A stretch of DNA of 64,000 nucleotides from an uncultured Elusimicrobiales bacterium (GTDB taxonomy: Bacteria; Elusimicrobiota; Elusimicrobia; Elusimicrobiales; Elusimicrobiaceae). The notes beneath the pieces were generated by a model. It was not told the origin of the DNA. It searched no databases and worked only from the letters and a program-made list of their open reading frames with translations. The stretch covers positions 1-64,000 of the forward strand of contig CALUXG010000038.1 of assembly GCA_944324685.1 (NCBI GenBank), written 5' to 3'. The translations under genes were made by a program, and so were the position numbers. Shown here piece after piece: positions 1,182 through 6,770 of the stretch (positions are counted from its first letter, which is position 1; each line of letters opens with the position of its first letter).

Positions 1182-2153
1182 TTAAAAAGAAAGACCGGCA
1201 AACAGTTCCCGTATTCCCGCCAAAGTTTCCTGCCGGACAAAGCGGCCGCGCACCTCTGCCGCCATGGGAAAATCTCTCAGCCAATACCCTGCCGTCTTTT
1301 TGCTGCGTCCTATGCCTATTTTTTCTCCGTAATGCGCCACGTTTTCTTCTATCAGGGCCAAATAAATTTCCACACGACGCCGCGCCGTCAGCGGAGCGGA
1401 TTCTTTTCCTGCCAGTTCCGCACAAATATTTTGAAAAACAAACGGATTGCCCACCGCCGCACGGCCCACCATAATGCCGCTGCAGCCGGCGTCAAAAAAC
1501 TTTTGGGCGGTTGCTCCGTCCTTAATGCCTCCGTTGCCGATAACGGGAATTTGCACCGAAGCGCAAATTTTAGCCAAAGCCGCCAAATCCGGCTCCCCGT
1601 TATGAACGTTTTCCGCCGCGCGGGCATGAATAATAACGGCCGCGGCTCCCTCATTTTGAGCCACACGGGCAATTTCATCTCCCAGTAATACGCCGTTTTT
1701 AAGTCCAATACGTGTTTTAAGCGTTACGGGAACGCTTACCGCTTTTACCGCCGCCGCTACCAAACGGCCCAGATGTACGGGATCTTTCATCAATACGCAG
1801 CCGGCACCGGCTTTATTGATTTTTTTCACGGGACAGCCGGCATTAATATCCACAATATCCGCCCCGCGTTCCTGTGCCGCCAAAGCGGCCTGCGCGATGG
1901 TTTGCTCGTCCGCGCCAAAAATCTGCATAGACACAGGCTTTTCTCTTTCATCTATCCGCAACATACGCAAACTGCGCGCATTGGCATAATGCAAAGCATG
2001 CGCCGACACCATCTCCGCACAGACTACACCGGCGCCGCCGCGCAAGCATAAAGCCCGAAAAGGCCCGTCCGTTACGCCGGCCATGGGCGCCAGCCATATA
2101 TTATTGGGCGCCCTGAAAGAACCGATTTTCAAAGAATGTATGAAGGAGGTCAT
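1182..2153 (-). CDS. dus: tRNA-dihydrouridine synthase (Dus family)
   Basis: FMN-dependent enzyme that reduces specific uridines in the D-loop of tRNA to dihydrouridine. The N-terminal TIM-barrel shows LAPMAGVTDGPFR near the start, the catalytic cysteine loop NAGCPVKKINKAGAGC near residue 95, and phosphate-binding segments VIGNGGI and GIMVGRAAVGNP, followed by a C-terminal helical domain. Length 323 residues is normal. I chose the ATG at 2153: it forms an ATGA overlap with the stop of the preceding gene and has GGAG nine bases upstream. The alternative TTG at 2168 would start inside that Shine-Dalgarno region. Which uridine it modifies cannot be read from sequence. It is the last gene of the nucleotidase-family transcript. 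Confidence 0.93.
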   Translation of the reverse strand: MTSFIHSLKIGSFRAPNNIWLAPMAGVTDGPFRALCLRGGAGVVCAEMVSAHALHYANARSLRMLRIDEREKPVSMQIFGADEQTIAQAALAAQERGADIVDINAGCPVKKINKAGAGCVLMKDPVHLGRLVAAAVKAVSVPVTLKTRIGLKNGVLLGDEIARVAQNEGAAAVIIHARAAENVHNGEPDLAALAKICASVQIPVIGNGGIKDGATAQKFFDAGCSGIMVGRAAVGNPFVFQNICAELAGKESAPLTARRRVEIYLALIEENVAHYGEKIGIGRSKKTAGYWLRDFPMAAEVRGRFVRQETLAGIRELFAGLSF

Positions 2154-3646
2154 GGAGTTTTTCTCCAACGTCCCGAAAACGGGCTTGGGACATGCGGTTT
2201 ACCAGCCAGACACAAAGCCAAAACGGTACGCACTTCCACCTGCGTGTTTTTGAATTCCAAAGAATCAATAAATCCGTCATGACCCGCGCCGCCCGCCAAC
2301 ATTTGATCCGTAATTGCCACACGATATGCGGTTTTGCTCGCCAACGGCGCGCCGTTTACCGCAACGGACCGTATACGGCGGCCGGCAGAAGCGGAAGGAT
2401 CATACACGATGGACAAGCCGGAAATCTGCGCAAAATTATGAGGCACGGACAGTCCCTCCTCCAAAGCTCTGCGCAAAGCCGCTCCTTTGATATCTAAAAA
2501 CATAATATGGTCCGCATAAGGATATGTTTTATACAAGTCATATTGTGTAACGGTTCCTTTAGGCAAAGATGCACGCAAAGAATCGGAATTGATAATGGCC
2601 GCATCCGCTTTGGCCCAGCGGCGCAAGCAGTCGGCCGTCCAGTTGCCCAGCGAGGATTCGCCATCCAGTTCTCCCGTTAATTCCCGTTCCAGCTTTCCGG
2701 CGGGACGGTTCATCTGGCTGCGCGCGGCGCGCCGGACGGAAGCAGTTTGCTCAGCGATGGCGGAATCTTCTCCAAAGTCGCGTCTATATAAAGCAATATC
2801 ATCAAAACGGCTATCTTCCAGCACGCCGTTTTTATTAAAAAATAAAGACACGCGGCCAACACCGTCCAGCTTAGATCCCGGGTAAACAATGAGCGTAGAT
2901 CCCACTTTTTGCGTTTCCGCGGCATCACGGCCCAAATTGGAACTTAAAATAACGTCAATACCTTCCACTTCTTGTGCCAAAGTGGCATCCGTAAGCGCGG
3001 TTTCCTTATCAGAAGATCCCAAAGCGCTGAGCAGCACCACGGCCTGTATATTTTGCTCCCGCAAAAGCCGCACCGTTCTTTTTATGGCGGAAATTTCGTC
3101 ATCTACTTTCAAACCGCCTATACGGCGTTTACCGCGCACGGCATCGCGCCCGACGACACCCAAAACCCCGATGCGGTATTTTCCCACCGAGACAATAAGC
3201 CACGGCTTTGCTCCGGCAGGTATTTGGCCGTTTACCGTAACATTGGAAAGAATAAAGGGAAAAGGGGATTTTTCTATAATTTGGCTTAATGAAGTCCAAC
3301 CGTAAAGCAAATCTTTTTCCGTAAACAAACGTCCGGAATAAGGCAGAGAGGCCGCCACCGTATTAAAATAAGCTCCCTGAGAAAGCGTCCCCTCCGGCGT
3401 TTGGGCAAACCAATTTCCTCCGTCCAGCAACAAAAAAGGAACCGTTTGCTTGTCCAAAAAAGCTTTCAACACAGAAAGCCCGCCCGTCATTTCATTGCCG
3501 TAACGCGGCTCCGGCCTTGACCAAAAAACGCCTTCTATATCTGAGGTAAAAAATAAATAGGCCGACGGCTCCGCCTGTTTGCCGCATCCGACAAGGCATG
3601 CGGCAAACGCGAGAAAGAAACAAAAACGGCGGACGGCGATATACAT
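2150..3646 (-). CDS. 5'-nucleotidase-family lipoprotein, probably catalytically dead
   Basis: Protein of 498 residues with the two-domain layout of periplasmic 5'-nucleotidases: an N-terminal calcineurin-like metallophosphatase fold and a C-terminal substrate domain from about residue 310 (ending motif AGGAGHDGF). It begins with a lipoprotein signal, lipobox LVGC with the lipid-carrying cysteine near residue 21, so it should be membrane anchored. The metal ligands present in both neighbouring paralogues are missing: DTHG is DIEG, GNHEF is absent, the GGHVH-type motif is replaced by SSNLGRD, and the HD pair is SA. The family says these residues bind the two metals, so I infer it has lost hydrolysis and may bind nucleotides or act as a partner protein. 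It overlaps the upstream paralogue by one base (TAATG) and dus by four, implying co-translation. Confidence 0.82.
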   Translation of the reverse strand: MYIAVRRFCFFLAFAACLVGCGKQAEPSAYLFFTSDIEGVFWSRPEPRYGNEMTGGLSVLKAFLDKQTVPFLLLDGGNWFAQTPEGTLSQGAYFNTVAASLPYSGRLFTEKDLLYGWTSLSQIIEKSPFPFILSNVTVNGQIPAGAKPWLIVSVGKYRIGVLGVVGRDAVRGKRRIGGLKVDDEISAIKRTVRLLREQNIQAVVLLSALGSSDKETALTDATLAQEVEGIDVILSSNLGRDAAETQKVGSTLIVYPGSKLDGVGRVSLFFNKNGVLEDSRFDDIALYRRDFGEDSAIAEQTASVRRAARSQMNRPAGKLERELTGELDGESSLGNWTADCLRRWAKADAAIINSDSLRASLPKGTVTQYDLYKTYPYADHIMFLDIKGAALRRALEEGLSVPHNFAQISGLSIVYDPSASAGRRIRSVAVNGAPLASKTAYRVAITDQMLAGGAGHDGFIDSLEFKNTQVEVRTVLALCLAGKPHVPSPFSGRWRKTP

Positions 3647-5112
3647 TATTGGAATTCCACAATGCGTCCCGTTTCAACGGCGCGGACGGGGGATTGCGTT
3701 TTTAATCCATTTTCCAATACGCTGCGAATGGTAACATCCGGTATCAACTGTTTTTCGGAATCTTTGATTTTCTTAAAAGGCCATCCTTCACTGCCGCCAT
3801 ATCCTATATAAGAATTGGTCGCCAGCGTATATTTATGATGGTTTTCCACCGGTTTTCCATCCACAAAAATTTGCAAATCTTTCACTTTGCCATTTTTGTT
3901 CCGATACGTAACATCCATGCCCGAATAGGTAAACAGACTGCGCGGCAACAAAGATTTTTTGACCAAATATTTCAGAAATTTACCGTCCACCGTCATTTTT
4001 ACGATACCGTTGTCAAACGGATGAATATCCGTCGTATCGCGGCGGGTAACAGGCCCTTTTTGGACATCCATGCGCGTGCCGCCGTTATTGTGCACGAAAA
4101 TTTGCGTGCCGGAGGCGGCGCGGCCCAAATCGGCAATCCAGTCATTAAGAGGACCGTCTTTATGTTCCGGTACGGAAGACACGCGGTTAATATTCTCCGC
4201 CGCTTCGCCAAAAACTTCATCCATACCCGCCTCTTTTAACGTTTCAGCATATTCGGCTATTTTTTGATCCTGACCAACCTTCTCGACAATCAGCGGAATA
4301 ATTTCCGATTTGGCGGAAATAAATTTACCGGTTTCGTCATCGGTTTCTACGGTGATTTTGCTCACATGTTGCAGATGACACCCGCTTTCTACAAACAATG
4401 TGCCGTTGATATATTCATTCTGTACGATATTATGCACGTGTCCGCCCAAAACGATGTTTACACGGCCGCCGAATTTTTTCGCTATTTTGGCCACATAAGC
4501 TTGCGTTCCATGTTTCACGTCCCTCAGCCCATCATGCACCAGCACGACCACCACATCCGGCTGTTGTTCTTCCACTTCTTTAAGCGCTTTTTTCAAAGCG
4601 GGCAGCGGCTTGGTAAATTTATACATTTTGTCGTCGTTGGTGGGATAGCGGTTGGCAAGTCCGATGACGGCTATGCTGACGCCGTCTACATCAAATATTT
4701 TATACGGCTTAATCAACGGCGGGAATTTGCCCGTTTTGCGTTCCAAAAAATTGGCCGCCAGAACGGAAAATTTTAAGTTCTGCAACAGAGGCTCCAAGGC
4801 GCTGTCTCGGAAATCAAATTCATGGTTCCCTATGGTGGTGGCCTGATAGCCCAACGCATTCATCAAAGCAACGCTTTTTAATCCCTGAGAGTTTTTGGCT
4901 TCTGCGGTGCCGTTGGCGAAATCCCCGCTGTCAAGCAGCAGATAATGTTCGGGTCCCGCTTCCAAAACAGCGGCCAAAGCGGCAAAGCCGCCCTGCCCGT
5001 TCTTTGGATAGAAAAAACCATGCGTATCGCTGGTATGATAAATAACCGTCGTTTTGGCAAACAAGCCTGCCGCAGCCAATGTCAATGCCAAAATCAAAAA
5101 TATTTTTCTCAT
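3646..5112 (-). CDS. Secreted 5'-nucleotidase/metallophosphatase
   Basis: Probable periplasmic nucleotide phosphohydrolase (5'-nucleotidase/UshA family) that would release phosphate and nucleosides from nucleotides outside the cytoplasm. The chosen start MRKIFLILALTLAAAGLFA has an AGGAG ribosome binding site and gives a clear cleavable signal peptide of about 19 residues. An in-frame start at 5154 would put 14 residues in front of the signal and is rejected. Metal-binding motifs are intact: SDTHGFFYP, LLLDSGDF, TIGNHEFDFRD, LVHDG and LGGHVHN, followed by the C-terminal substrate domain with HNNGGTRMDVQKG and ATNSYIGYGGSEGWPF. It is 488 residues, highly similar to the gene at 5229-6704, and lies in one transcript with the degenerate lipoprotein paralogue and dus. 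The exact substrate is unknown. Confidence 0.88.
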   Translation of the reverse strand: MRKIFLILALTLAAAGLFAKTTVIYHTSDTHGFFYPKNGQGGFAALAAVLEAGPEHYLLLDSGDFANGTAEAKNSQGLKSVALMNALGYQATTIGNHEFDFRDSALEPLLQNLKFSVLAANFLERKTGKFPPLIKPYKIFDVDGVSIAVIGLANRYPTNDDKMYKFTKPLPALKKALKEVEEQQPDVVVVLVHDGLRDVKHGTQAYVAKIAKKFGGRVNIVLGGHVHNIVQNEYINGTLFVESGCHLQHVSKITVETDDETGKFISAKSEIIPLIVEKVGQDQKIAEYAETLKEAGMDEVFGEAAENINRVSSVPEHKDGPLNDWIADLGRAASGTQIFVHNNGGTRMDVQKGPVTRRDTTDIHPFDNGIVKMTVDGKFLKYLVKKSLLPRSLFTYSGMDVTYRNKNGKVKDLQIFVDGKPVENHHKYTLATNSYIGYGGSEGWPFKKIKDSEKQLIPDVTIRSVLENGLKTQSPVRAVETGRIVEFQ

Positions 5113-5166
5113 ACGTTCTCCTTGCAGAATCAAAGGCGCCGCATTCGGCGGCAAACAACTGTTTTT

Positions 5167-5210
5167 ATCCTATCAAAAACAAACGCCCGCATTCAAGCGC
5201 GGGCGTTTGA
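5167..5210 (-). promoter_or_regulatory. Composite terminator/promoter between nucleotidase genes
   Basis: A hairpin AAACGCCCGC / GCGGGCGTTT (5181-5190 and 5199-5208) follows the stop of the upstream paralogue and has a T-rich tail on the minus strand, so it looks like a terminator. The arm and loop also contain TTGAAT (5196-5191), which sits 18 bp from TAGGAT (5172-5167), a plausible sigma-70 promoter for the next gene. The same arrangement, with nearly the same bases, occurs at 6728-6770. Confidence 0.6.
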
Positions 5211-5228
5211 ACAAACAAAAGGGATGCG

Positions 5229-6704
5229 CTACCCTTTCAGCTGGCGGACGCGGCCCGTATCCGGCGCCGATACAGGCCCTCGATTCAGAGCCCGTTCCAG
5301 CAACAGCCGGATGGTCTTGTCTCCGGCTTGTTTTTTCTTATCCTCAGCAATGGATTTGAACATTTTTCCCTCGCTGCCGCCGCCTGCCAAATAAGAATTG
5401 GTCGCCAAAACATATATATCTTTATTTTTGACTTTTTTCCCGTTTACATATACGTTAACTTTTTTTGCCCGTCCTTTTTTATCTTTATGATAAGTTACCC
5501 GCAGGCCGGAATAACTCAGCAAATTTCGGGGTAACAGAGAAGACGAGACCAAATCTTTCAAAAACTTGCCGCTCACTTCCATCATCACCACCGTATCGTC
5601 AAAAGGGAACATGTCCATCAAATCCCGTCTGGTAATATCCCCTTTTTCCAAGCCCGTCCGCACGCCGGCGCTGTTGTGCACGAATATATCCGCTCCGGCA
5701 TACTCGCGGGCAACGTCAGCTATCCAATTTTCCGCCGCACCGTCCATTTCTCCCATGGCAGAAGACCGTTTAGGCAGCGCTTGCTCCGTTCGGCCCAAAA
5801 CCTCATCCATCCCGGGTTCTTTTAGAGACTGGGCATAAGAAGCCATCCCTCTATCTTCTCCGGTTTTGGCAATATCCAAAGGAATAATAAAAGATTCCGC
5901 CGATACAAATTCTCCCGTTTTATCATCTGTCGTAACGGAGACTTTGCCCAAGAACTGCAAATTGGCTCCGTCTTCCACAAAAAGGACGTCTTTGATATAT
6001 TTATTGCTGAAAATTCTGTGGGCATGACCGCCTAACACCACATGAATGCGGCCGGAATACCTCCGTCCGATTTCCCCTATATAAAACGGACGTTCGGGCT
6101 TGTCGTCTGCCAAAGAGTCATGCGCCAAAACGGCCACCACGTTCGGTTTTTGTTTCTCCACTTCCGGCAATACTTTTTCCAAAGCGGCCAGCGGATCGGT
6201 GAATGTATATTTTTCCGTCGGCCGCGTAGGTTTGGCATTGGCCAGTCCGATAACGGCTACACGGACTCCATTTACATCAAAAATTTTATAGGGCAATACA
6301 TGGGCCGGCATTTTACCGGTTTTTTTCTCCACCAAATTGGCAGCCAGCACCGCAAAATCCGCCTCTTGCAGCATATTTTCAAGCGCCACCTCCCGATAAG
6401 CAAATTCGTGATTGCCCAACGTCGCCGCATGATAGCCCATTTTATTCATCAATTGTACGGCTTTAAGTCCTTTGGAGGTTTTCACTTCCATCGTCCCTTC
6501 CGCAAAATCTCCTCCGTCCAGCAACAAATAATGTTTTGGTCCCTGATTCAGCACGGCTTTGGCGGCGGCAAAACCGCCCCGTCCTTTTTTGGGATAGAAA
6601 AACCCATGTGTATCGCTGGTATGATACATAACCGTCGTTTTGGCAAATAAAATGCCCGCCGTTAAAACAAAAAGAAACAATAAGCTTATTTTTTTCACCG
6701 TCAT
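5229..6704 (-). CDS. Secreted 5'-nucleotidase/metallophosphatase, paralogue
   Basis: Protein of 491 residues from the same family as the gene at 3646-5112 and close to it over its whole length. It has a signal peptide (MTVKKISLLFLFVLTAGILFA), then intact metal-site motifs YHTSDTHGFFYP, LLLDGGDF, TLGNHEFAYRE, LAHDS and LGGHAHRIF, and the C-terminal domain with VHNSAGVRTGLEKG and ATNSYLAGGGSEGKMF. It is expected to hydrolyse nucleotides or related phosphoesters in the periplasm. CAGGAG precedes the ATG. It is flanked on both sides by the same hairpin/promoter element, so it is probably an independent transcription unit produced by tandem duplication. Confidence 0.88.
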   Translation of the reverse strand: MTVKKISLLFLFVLTAGILFAKTTVMYHTSDTHGFFYPKKGRGGFAAAKAVLNQGPKHYLLLDGGDFAEGTMEVKTSKGLKAVQLMNKMGYHAATLGNHEFAYREVALENMLQEADFAVLAANLVEKKTGKMPAHVLPYKIFDVNGVRVAVIGLANAKPTRPTEKYTFTDPLAALEKVLPEVEKQKPNVVAVLAHDSLADDKPERPFYIGEIGRRYSGRIHVVLGGHAHRIFSNKYIKDVLFVEDGANLQFLGKVSVTTDDKTGEFVSAESFIIPLDIAKTGEDRGMASYAQSLKEPGMDEVLGRTEQALPKRSSAMGEMDGAAENWIADVAREYAGADIFVHNSAGVRTGLEKGDITRRDLMDMFPFDDTVVMMEVSGKFLKDLVSSSLLPRNLLSYSGLRVTYHKDKKGRAKKVNVYVNGKKVKNKDIYVLATNSYLAGGGSEGKMFKSIAEDKKKQAGDKTIRLLLERALNRGPVSAPDTGRVRQLKG

Positions 6705-6727: not shown

Positions 6728-6770
6728 ATTATATTACAAACCAACGCCCGCATTCAAATGCGGGCGTTGG
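6728..6770 (-). promoter_or_regulatory. nifS terminator combined with nucleotidase promoter
   Basis: A 14-bp stem (6741-6754 with 6757-6770) ends the nifU-nifS unit. The minus strand then carries TTGAAT (6757-6752), which covers the hairpin loop, an 18-bp spacer, and a perfect TATAAT (6733-6728) ahead of the 5229-6704 gene. Spacing and most bases match the element at 5167-5210. Confidence 0.65.

What the first reader, a model, noticed from the sequence alone, without database searches (positions are those of the whole stretch)
2150..6704. Cluster of three 5'-nucleotidase paralogues, one a degenerate lipoprotein
Two secreted enzymes keep all metal-site motifs. The third, a lipoprotein in the same coupled transcript, has lost DxH, GNHE, GGHxH and the HD pair but keeps the C-terminal substrate domain with its AGGAGHDGF loop. 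Selection has preserved a full-length frame. Inference: it may be a nucleotide-binding surface receptor or a scaffold handing nucleotides to its active neighbours.
Basis: partly seen in the sequence, partly recalled or inferred. Interest (0 to 1): 0.52.

Follow-up and report, generated by a model that had tools for sequence, protein, structure and literature searches.

The report
Dead nucleotidase lipoprotein paired with enzyme
A gut bacterium carries a secreted nucleotide-cutting enzyme and, coupled to it, a membrane-anchored dead copy of the same enzyme; relatives across the bacterial order keep the same pair, which suggests the dead copy is a working partner and not a decaying gene.

Summary
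The cluster is real. N2 (3646-5112) keeps every metal and dyad residue. N3 (2150-3646), a lipoprotein, keeps 1 of 7 metal ligands and is under purifying selection. Corrections: N1 (5229-6704) has Ala at the catalytic-dyad Asp, and a terminator hairpin separates N1 from N2; only N2-N3-dus is coupled (TAATG, ATGA).

N3 is not decaying. In the order, 83 of 89 genomes examined have an intact secreted copy directly followed by a degenerate one. Of 82 complete degenerate homologues, 81 keep at most 3 of 7 ligands. All 86 with an N-terminus have a lipobox-like Cys. An E-F motif is in 86 of 87 of them and in 0 of 148 intact copies. In 28 genomes outside the order the gene is intact, without a degenerate partner.

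Best reading: an old, dedicated pseudoenzyme, the lipid-anchored non-catalytic partner of a secreted 5'-nucleotidase. Pairing, predicted anchoring and constraint are shown by sequence; physical association is inferred. Canonical nucleotide binding is doubtful: the base clamp is altered here and lost in the sister family. The searches run found no earlier description.

The parts
5229..6704 (-). N1: secreted 5'-nucleotidase paralogue, 7 of 7 metal ligands, catalytic-dyad Asp replaced by Ala102
3646..5112 (-). N2: secreted 5'-nucleotidase with complete metal site and His97/Asp100 dyad; the presumed active partner
2150..3646 (-). N3: lipoprotein pseudo-5'-nucleotidase, 1 of 7 metal ligands
3584..3595 (-). 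lipobox LVGC of N3 (Cys21)
   Evidence: translation; lipobox rule recalled
2246..2257 (-). E464-F-K-N467: motif specific to the degenerate clade
3644..3648 (-). TAATG: N2 stop overlapping N3 start
2150..2153 (-). ATGA: N3 stop overlapping the likely dus start
1182..2153 (-). dus-like gene (tRNA-dihydrouridine synthase; name recalled from the sequence), directly downstream of N3 in the family
   Evidence: no family search was run on it
5180..5209 (-). terminator-like hairpin with T tract between N1 and N2
6741..6770 (-). similar terminator-like hairpin upstream of N1

Best explanation
N3 is a dedicated pseudoenzyme: the lipid-anchored, non-catalytic partner of the secreted 5'-nucleotidase N2 made from the same coupled message. 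Shown by sequence and prediction: N3 keeps the two-domain fold, has lost the metal site, is a predicted lipoprotein with a short tether, is coupled to N2, is under purifying selection, and belongs to an order-wide clade with its own conserved C-terminal E-F motif that almost always follows an intact secreted copy. Inferred: N2 and N3 associate, so that N3 holds the soluble enzyme at the outer membrane (no Asp at +2, E. coli rule) and may tune it or pass substrate to it; the complex strips phosphate from nucleotides so that nucleosides and phosphate can be taken up. Step probabilities: N3 non-hydrolytic by the UshA mechanism 0.95; functional, not decaying 0.95; works with N2 0.6; by physical tethering 0.4.
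For: Tandem intact->degenerate in 82 of 89 order genomes by rule plus G244 by eye; 4 more end at contig edges, and in G163 the intact copy ends at another contig's edge. Degenerate clade one branch, SH-aLRT 100. Lipobox-like Cys in 86 of 86 degenerate copies with an N-terminus against 5 of 145 intact ones; a stricter first pattern gave 50 of 55 against 6 of 92. +2 residue never Asp, tether 7-10 residues, 86 copies. E-F motif in 86 of 87 degenerate and 0 of 148 intact copies. Omega 0.041-0.123. Full-length fold kept: pLDDT 83.4; 461 residues aligned to 3ive, Z 32.6, rmsd 6.5. The two order genomes with no degenerate copy, G044 and G048, also lack the tandem-type intact copy and hold only the lone type.
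Against: No interaction is tested; linkage and coupling also fit two functions sharing a message. In G243 the degenerate copy has no intact gene upstream; a tandem-type intact copy lies on another contig. Co-loss rests on two genomes of one genus code. UshA itself is known as a monomer (recalled). Five intact copies were flagged as lipobox-like; I judge them doubtful but did not exclude them. Lipoprotein status and the +2 rule are predictions transferred from E. coli.
Confidence: 0.5

Rival explanations
1. N3 is a nucleotide- or nucleoside-binding surface receptor that captures ligand with its retained C-terminal domain and hands it to N2 or to a transporter; the N-terminal domain is a relic.
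For: In the window's genus R410 and Tyr at 429 are kept in all 37 rows with those residues, and position 498 is His in 32, Tyr in 4, Gln in 1; the GGxGH loop is conserved. PF02872 is still the best match.
Against: In the sister family R410 remains in 2 of 34 rows, 498 is Ser in 28 and the loop is gone, though lipobox, tandem order and E-F motif persist. The window copy has Gln at 498. Parts of the N-terminal domain are as conserved as the C-terminal one in the genus.
Confidence: 0.25
2. N3 has gained a different catalytic or ligand-binding activity at the remodelled N-terminal site, unrelated to N2.
For: Within the genus the former metal loops are conserved in changed form (DIEG, GGNW, EKD); some metal positions are among the less variable columns in family f1 (percentiles 0.11-0.74).
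Against: The replacements differ between genera (DIEG, DVQG, AGIG, RSGG, RGQG), and in family f2 the seven positions are at variability percentiles 0.22-0.98, so no single new site is shared.
Confidence: 0.12
3. N3 is a decaying pseudogene on its way out, or lineage-specific noise.
For: One copy, L084 (G042), is split by a frameshift into two ORFs, which may be an assembly error; G044 and G048 lack it.
Against: Omega of 0.041-0.123; full-length frames in two families; clade-specific motif in 86 of 87.
Confidence: 0.03

Closest known systems
UshA / CD73 type I secreted 5'-nucleotidases (PF00149 + PF02872), e.g. E. coli UshA, c4898 (3ive/3ivd)
   Same: Two-domain architecture and fold; N2 has the full metal site, dyad and an aromatic base clamp; N3 aligns over 461 residues
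   Different: N3 lacks 6 of 7 metal ligands, the dyad and the Phe clamp
Lipoprotein 5'-nucleotidases such as Vibrio parahaemolyticus NutA (passage in PMC8475336)
   Same: Family member anchored by a lipobox
   Different: NutA is listed among 5'-nucleotidases as an enzyme; here the anchored copy is the dead one and the intact one is soluble
Enzyme-pseudoenzyme pairs in general (recalled)
   Same: A dead paralogue kept beside an active one
   Different: I know of no case in the UshA family; the searches run found none
UshA_like_PCGU (NF041198)
   Same: Weak similarity, 61.1 bits
   Different: Far below its 275-bit cut-off

Membership tests
UshA-type 5'-nucleotidase (N2) | Metallophos and 5_nucleotid_C domains above Pfam cut-offs | tested here: met
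   61.7 and 83.5 bits
UshA-type 5'-nucleotidase (N2) | Seven metal ligands, His/Asp dyad, R410, aromatic clamp | tested here: met
   D29 H31 D64 N96 H193 H225 H227; H97/D100; R347; F366/Y435
UshA-type 5'-nucleotidase (N2) | 5'-nucleotidase activity | not testable with these tools
   needs an assay
UshA-type 5'-nucleotidase (N1) | Complete catalytic site | tested here: not met
   metal ligands 7 of 7, but Ala102 at the dyad Asp
UshA-type 5'-nucleotidase as an enzyme (N3) | Dimetal site | tested here: not met
   1 of 7 ligands; no Metallophos match at E<=1
UshA-type 5'-nucleotidase as an enzyme (N3) | Aromatic base clamp F429/F498 | tested here: not met
   Y377 and Q448
UshA homologous superfamily (N3, by descent and fold) | C-terminal domain and two-domain fold | tested here: met
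   PF02872 118.4 bits; Z 32.6 to 3ive over 461 residues, rmsd 6.5
Bacterial lipoprotein (N3) | Signal peptide with lipobox Cys | tested here: met
   LVGC at residues 18-21; lipobox-like Cys in 86 of 86 degenerate copies with an N-terminus; lipidation itself not tested
Pseudoenzyme partner of N2 (N3) | Physical or functional association with the active paralogue | not testable with these tools
   only genomic linkage and coupling were seen

The most novel reading that the evidence does not exclude
The pair is a heteromeric 5'-nucleotidase not described before: after a secreted paralogue took over catalysis in the ancestor of the order, the phylum's own single-copy enzyme lost its active site, gained a lipid anchor and became an obligate structural or regulatory subunit, with the conserved E-F motif as part of the contact surface. 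The basal copy in G169 (5 of 7 ligands) preserves an intermediate stage.
Probability: 0.35. Interest if true: 0.68.

Novelty: new variant of a known kind. Interest (0 to 1): 0.52.

Why it matters
It offers an evolutionary series in one gene family: an intact single-copy type outside the order, an intermediate copy with 5 of 7 ligands, and a dead, anchored, selected pseudoenzyme inside it. It makes testable whether a pseudo-subunit can divide anchoring from catalysis in a periplasmic nucleotide-scavenging enzyme. It also warns that annotation by the C-terminal domain would call these lipoproteins 5'-nucleotidases.

Tried and rejected
Pseudogene or recent decay: rejected on omega, frame conservation and the shared motif.

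A single conserved replacement site at the old metal centre: not supported; replacements differ among genera.

Nucleotide auxotrophy as the reason for the pair: pyrB is absent here and matched in 4 of 32 genomes of the genus, but it is matched in 43 of 45 genomes of the sister family, which also has the pair. So auxotrophy does not explain the pair.

In-place duplication against replacement by another lineage: the quick tree puts the degenerate clade with the single-copy class enzymes (91, 91 and 87, not starred), and C340/C479 is shared by them (20 of 28 single-copy, 81 of 91 degenerate rows, 0 of 120 intact order rows), but the AU test does not reject one clade of all order copies (p 0.219). 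Left open. The tree is a quick one with long branches.

Degenerate homologues outside the phylum were not surveyed: the one genome-contig scan returned only 14 loci at 59-75% identity, titled Elusimicrobiota or unnamed uncultured bacteria.

Limits of the counts: the profile classes were built from rows split by metal count, so 'degenerate' and 'low metal count' are partly the same measure; lipobox, motif and gene order are independent of it. My lipobox rule was changed between and after seeing the sequences. Not classified at the site level: genus and order genomes seen only as hits (for example G076, G083, G092, G240). G048 was read later and is not in the 89.
Full report
WHAT IS THERE. The window is part of a 1.4 Mb genome in 49 contigs whose nearest named matches to N3 are Elusimicrobiota metagenome genomes, among them Candidatus Avelusimicrobium at 74%. 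On the - strand lie N1 (5229-6704), N2 (3646-5112) and N3 (2150-3646). N1 and N2 match Metallophos and 5_nucleotid_C; N3 matches only 5_nucleotid_C of the two. Using E. coli UshA (NC_000913.3) as yardstick, with residue roles recalled (D41, H43, D84, N116, H217, H252, Q254 metal; H117/D120 dyad; R410; F429/F498 clamp), N2 keeps everything, with His for Q254 and Tyr for F498. N1 keeps the metal ligands but has Ala at D120. N3 keeps only D41 of the ligands. The general two-domain mechanism and base sandwich were seen in passages of PMC10454023 and PMC8475336.

GENE ORDER. N2 and N3 overlap as TAATG, and N3 and the next gene as ATGA. A 12-pair hairpin with a T tract lies between N1 and N2 and a 13-pair one upstream of N1 (17 terminator-like sites were found in the scanned region against 13.2 expected, so the count alone is weak, but these two stems are the longest). 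N1 is thus probably a separate unit.

SURVEY. N3 finds a match in 61 of 61 relatives and in 148 of 247 genomes drawn from the phylum. I fetched 138 loci (placeholder left out) and classified their ORFs with two profiles and by metal residues. Complete rows: 144 intact-type (142 with 7 of 7, 2 with 6) and 82 degenerate-type (22 with 0, 51 with 1, 6 with 2, 2 with 3, 1 with 5). The one with 5 is L146 (G169). Of 89 order genomes, 82 have the degenerate gene directly after an intact one by rule; G244 does too, but its stop-to-stop ORF is long; four (G056, G163, G165, G248) end at contig edges; G243 has it apart; G044 has none. G048, seen later, also has none. G044 and G048 also lack the tandem-type intact copy. 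All 28 genomes examined outside the order have an intact gene and no degenerate one.

ANCHOR. All 86 degenerate copies with an N-terminus have a Cys after a hydrophobic stretch, 7-10 residues before the domain, never with Asp at +2. Five of 145 intact copies were flagged by the same rule (L068, L197, L191, L146 and, outside the order, L165). With the first, stricter pattern, on the smaller set, the figures were 50 of 55 and 6 of 92.

CONSTRAINT. Nei-Gojobori omega is 0.041-0.123 for 9 N3-type pairs, 0.027-0.092 for 9 N2-type pairs and 0.118-0.152 for 3 N1-type pairs; some dS values exceed 1, so these are rough. A motif E-F (N3 464-465) near the C-terminus is in 86 of 87 degenerate rows with letters there (one has E-L) and in 0 of 148 intact rows. 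The seven metal columns are invariant or nearly so in intact rows; they stand at variability percentiles 0.11-0.74 in family f1 and 0.22-0.98 in family f2 degenerate rows.

HISTORY. On a quick tree of 93 rows the degenerate copies form one branch (100), with G169's intermediate among its basal lines; the tandem intact copies fall in another (99). The degenerate branch falls with single-copy enzymes of the class, and a Cys pair (C340/C479) is shared with these (20 of 28) and absent from all 120 intact order rows. A single clade of all order copies is not rejected (p 0.219). In the window's family, a dus match follows the degenerate gene in 35 of 39 genus rows (the other four are cut at contig ends) and in 17 of 18 other rows (in G169 2.1 kb away). 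In the sister family rplM-rpsI matches lie upstream of the pair in 32 of 34 rows, and in 8 of 28 outside loci they lie upstream of the single enzyme, which points to one ancestral locus.

STRUCTURE. AlphaFold2 on 17 sequences gave pLDDT 83.4, pTM 0.78. Foldseek ranks the E. coli 5'-nucleotidase 3ive first (1.3e-41, TM 0.62); the second aligner gives Z 32.6 over 461 residues, rmsd 6.5. The dead N-terminal half keeps its predicted fold even though the Metallophos model does not match it. The moderate TM and rmsd probably reflect domain rotation (inference).

WHAT IT DOES. The features common to nearly all degenerate copies are the anchor, the place after an intact secreted copy and the E-F motif. 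The nucleotide pocket is not common: R410 is in 37 of 37 genus rows with the residue, 4 of 18 other family rows and 2 of 34 sister-family rows. So the best common function is a partner or anchor of the active enzyme; ligand binding may be an added or kept role in the window's family. No protein contact has been tested.

LITERATURE. PMC10454023 (passages read) marks Elusimicrobiota as without ushA-like genes, with cut-offs of score >150 and coverage >70% on complete genomes; the matches here in 148 of 247 phylum genomes come from a different query and looser limits. Searches for a degenerate or pseudoenzyme 5'-nucleotidase in bacteria gave nothing that describes this pair (listings and abstract starts only, apart from the two papers named). 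Most subscription papers are not covered.

VERDICT. A real, conserved enzyme-pseudoenzyme pair, new as a variant of a known kind. Mechanism moderately supported, untested.

Noticed in passing
5229-6704; L099, L102, L104, L106, L108, L111-L113, L115-L119: N1-type copies keep their metal ligands but have Ala at the dyad Asp in 14 of 15 three-gene clusters (L120 keeps Asp; the L113 copy is split in two ORFs); a second, milder loss of a catalytic residue in the same cluster, with somewhat higher omega.
   Followed up: partly
L146:4874-6499: Lipoprotein copy in G169 with 5 of 7 metal ligands but without the catalytic dyad: an apparent intermediate.
   Followed up: partly
window genome G000: No aspartate carbamoyltransferase and no PurF above cut-off; 4 of 32 genomes of the genus have a pyrB match. 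Likely nucleotide auxotrophy, though the genome is about 95% complete.
   Followed up: partly
L091-L096: A separate group of intact 5'-nucleotidases in several genus genomes with an altered pocket (FQLPG-R, Tyr429, His498) and no degenerate neighbour in the fetched stretch.
   Followed up: no
L084:4694-6203: Degenerate gene of G042 split by a frameshift into two ORFs; assembly error or real decay not decided.
   Followed up: no
L145 (G090, one contig of 1,643,562 bases): The pair is present in a one-contig genome whose size matches, from memory, the cultured Elusimicrobium minutum; identity not verified by any search.
   Followed up: no
5180-5209 and 6741-6770: Two very similar terminator-like hairpins flank N1, as if a gene-plus-terminator unit had been duplicated.
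   Followed up: no
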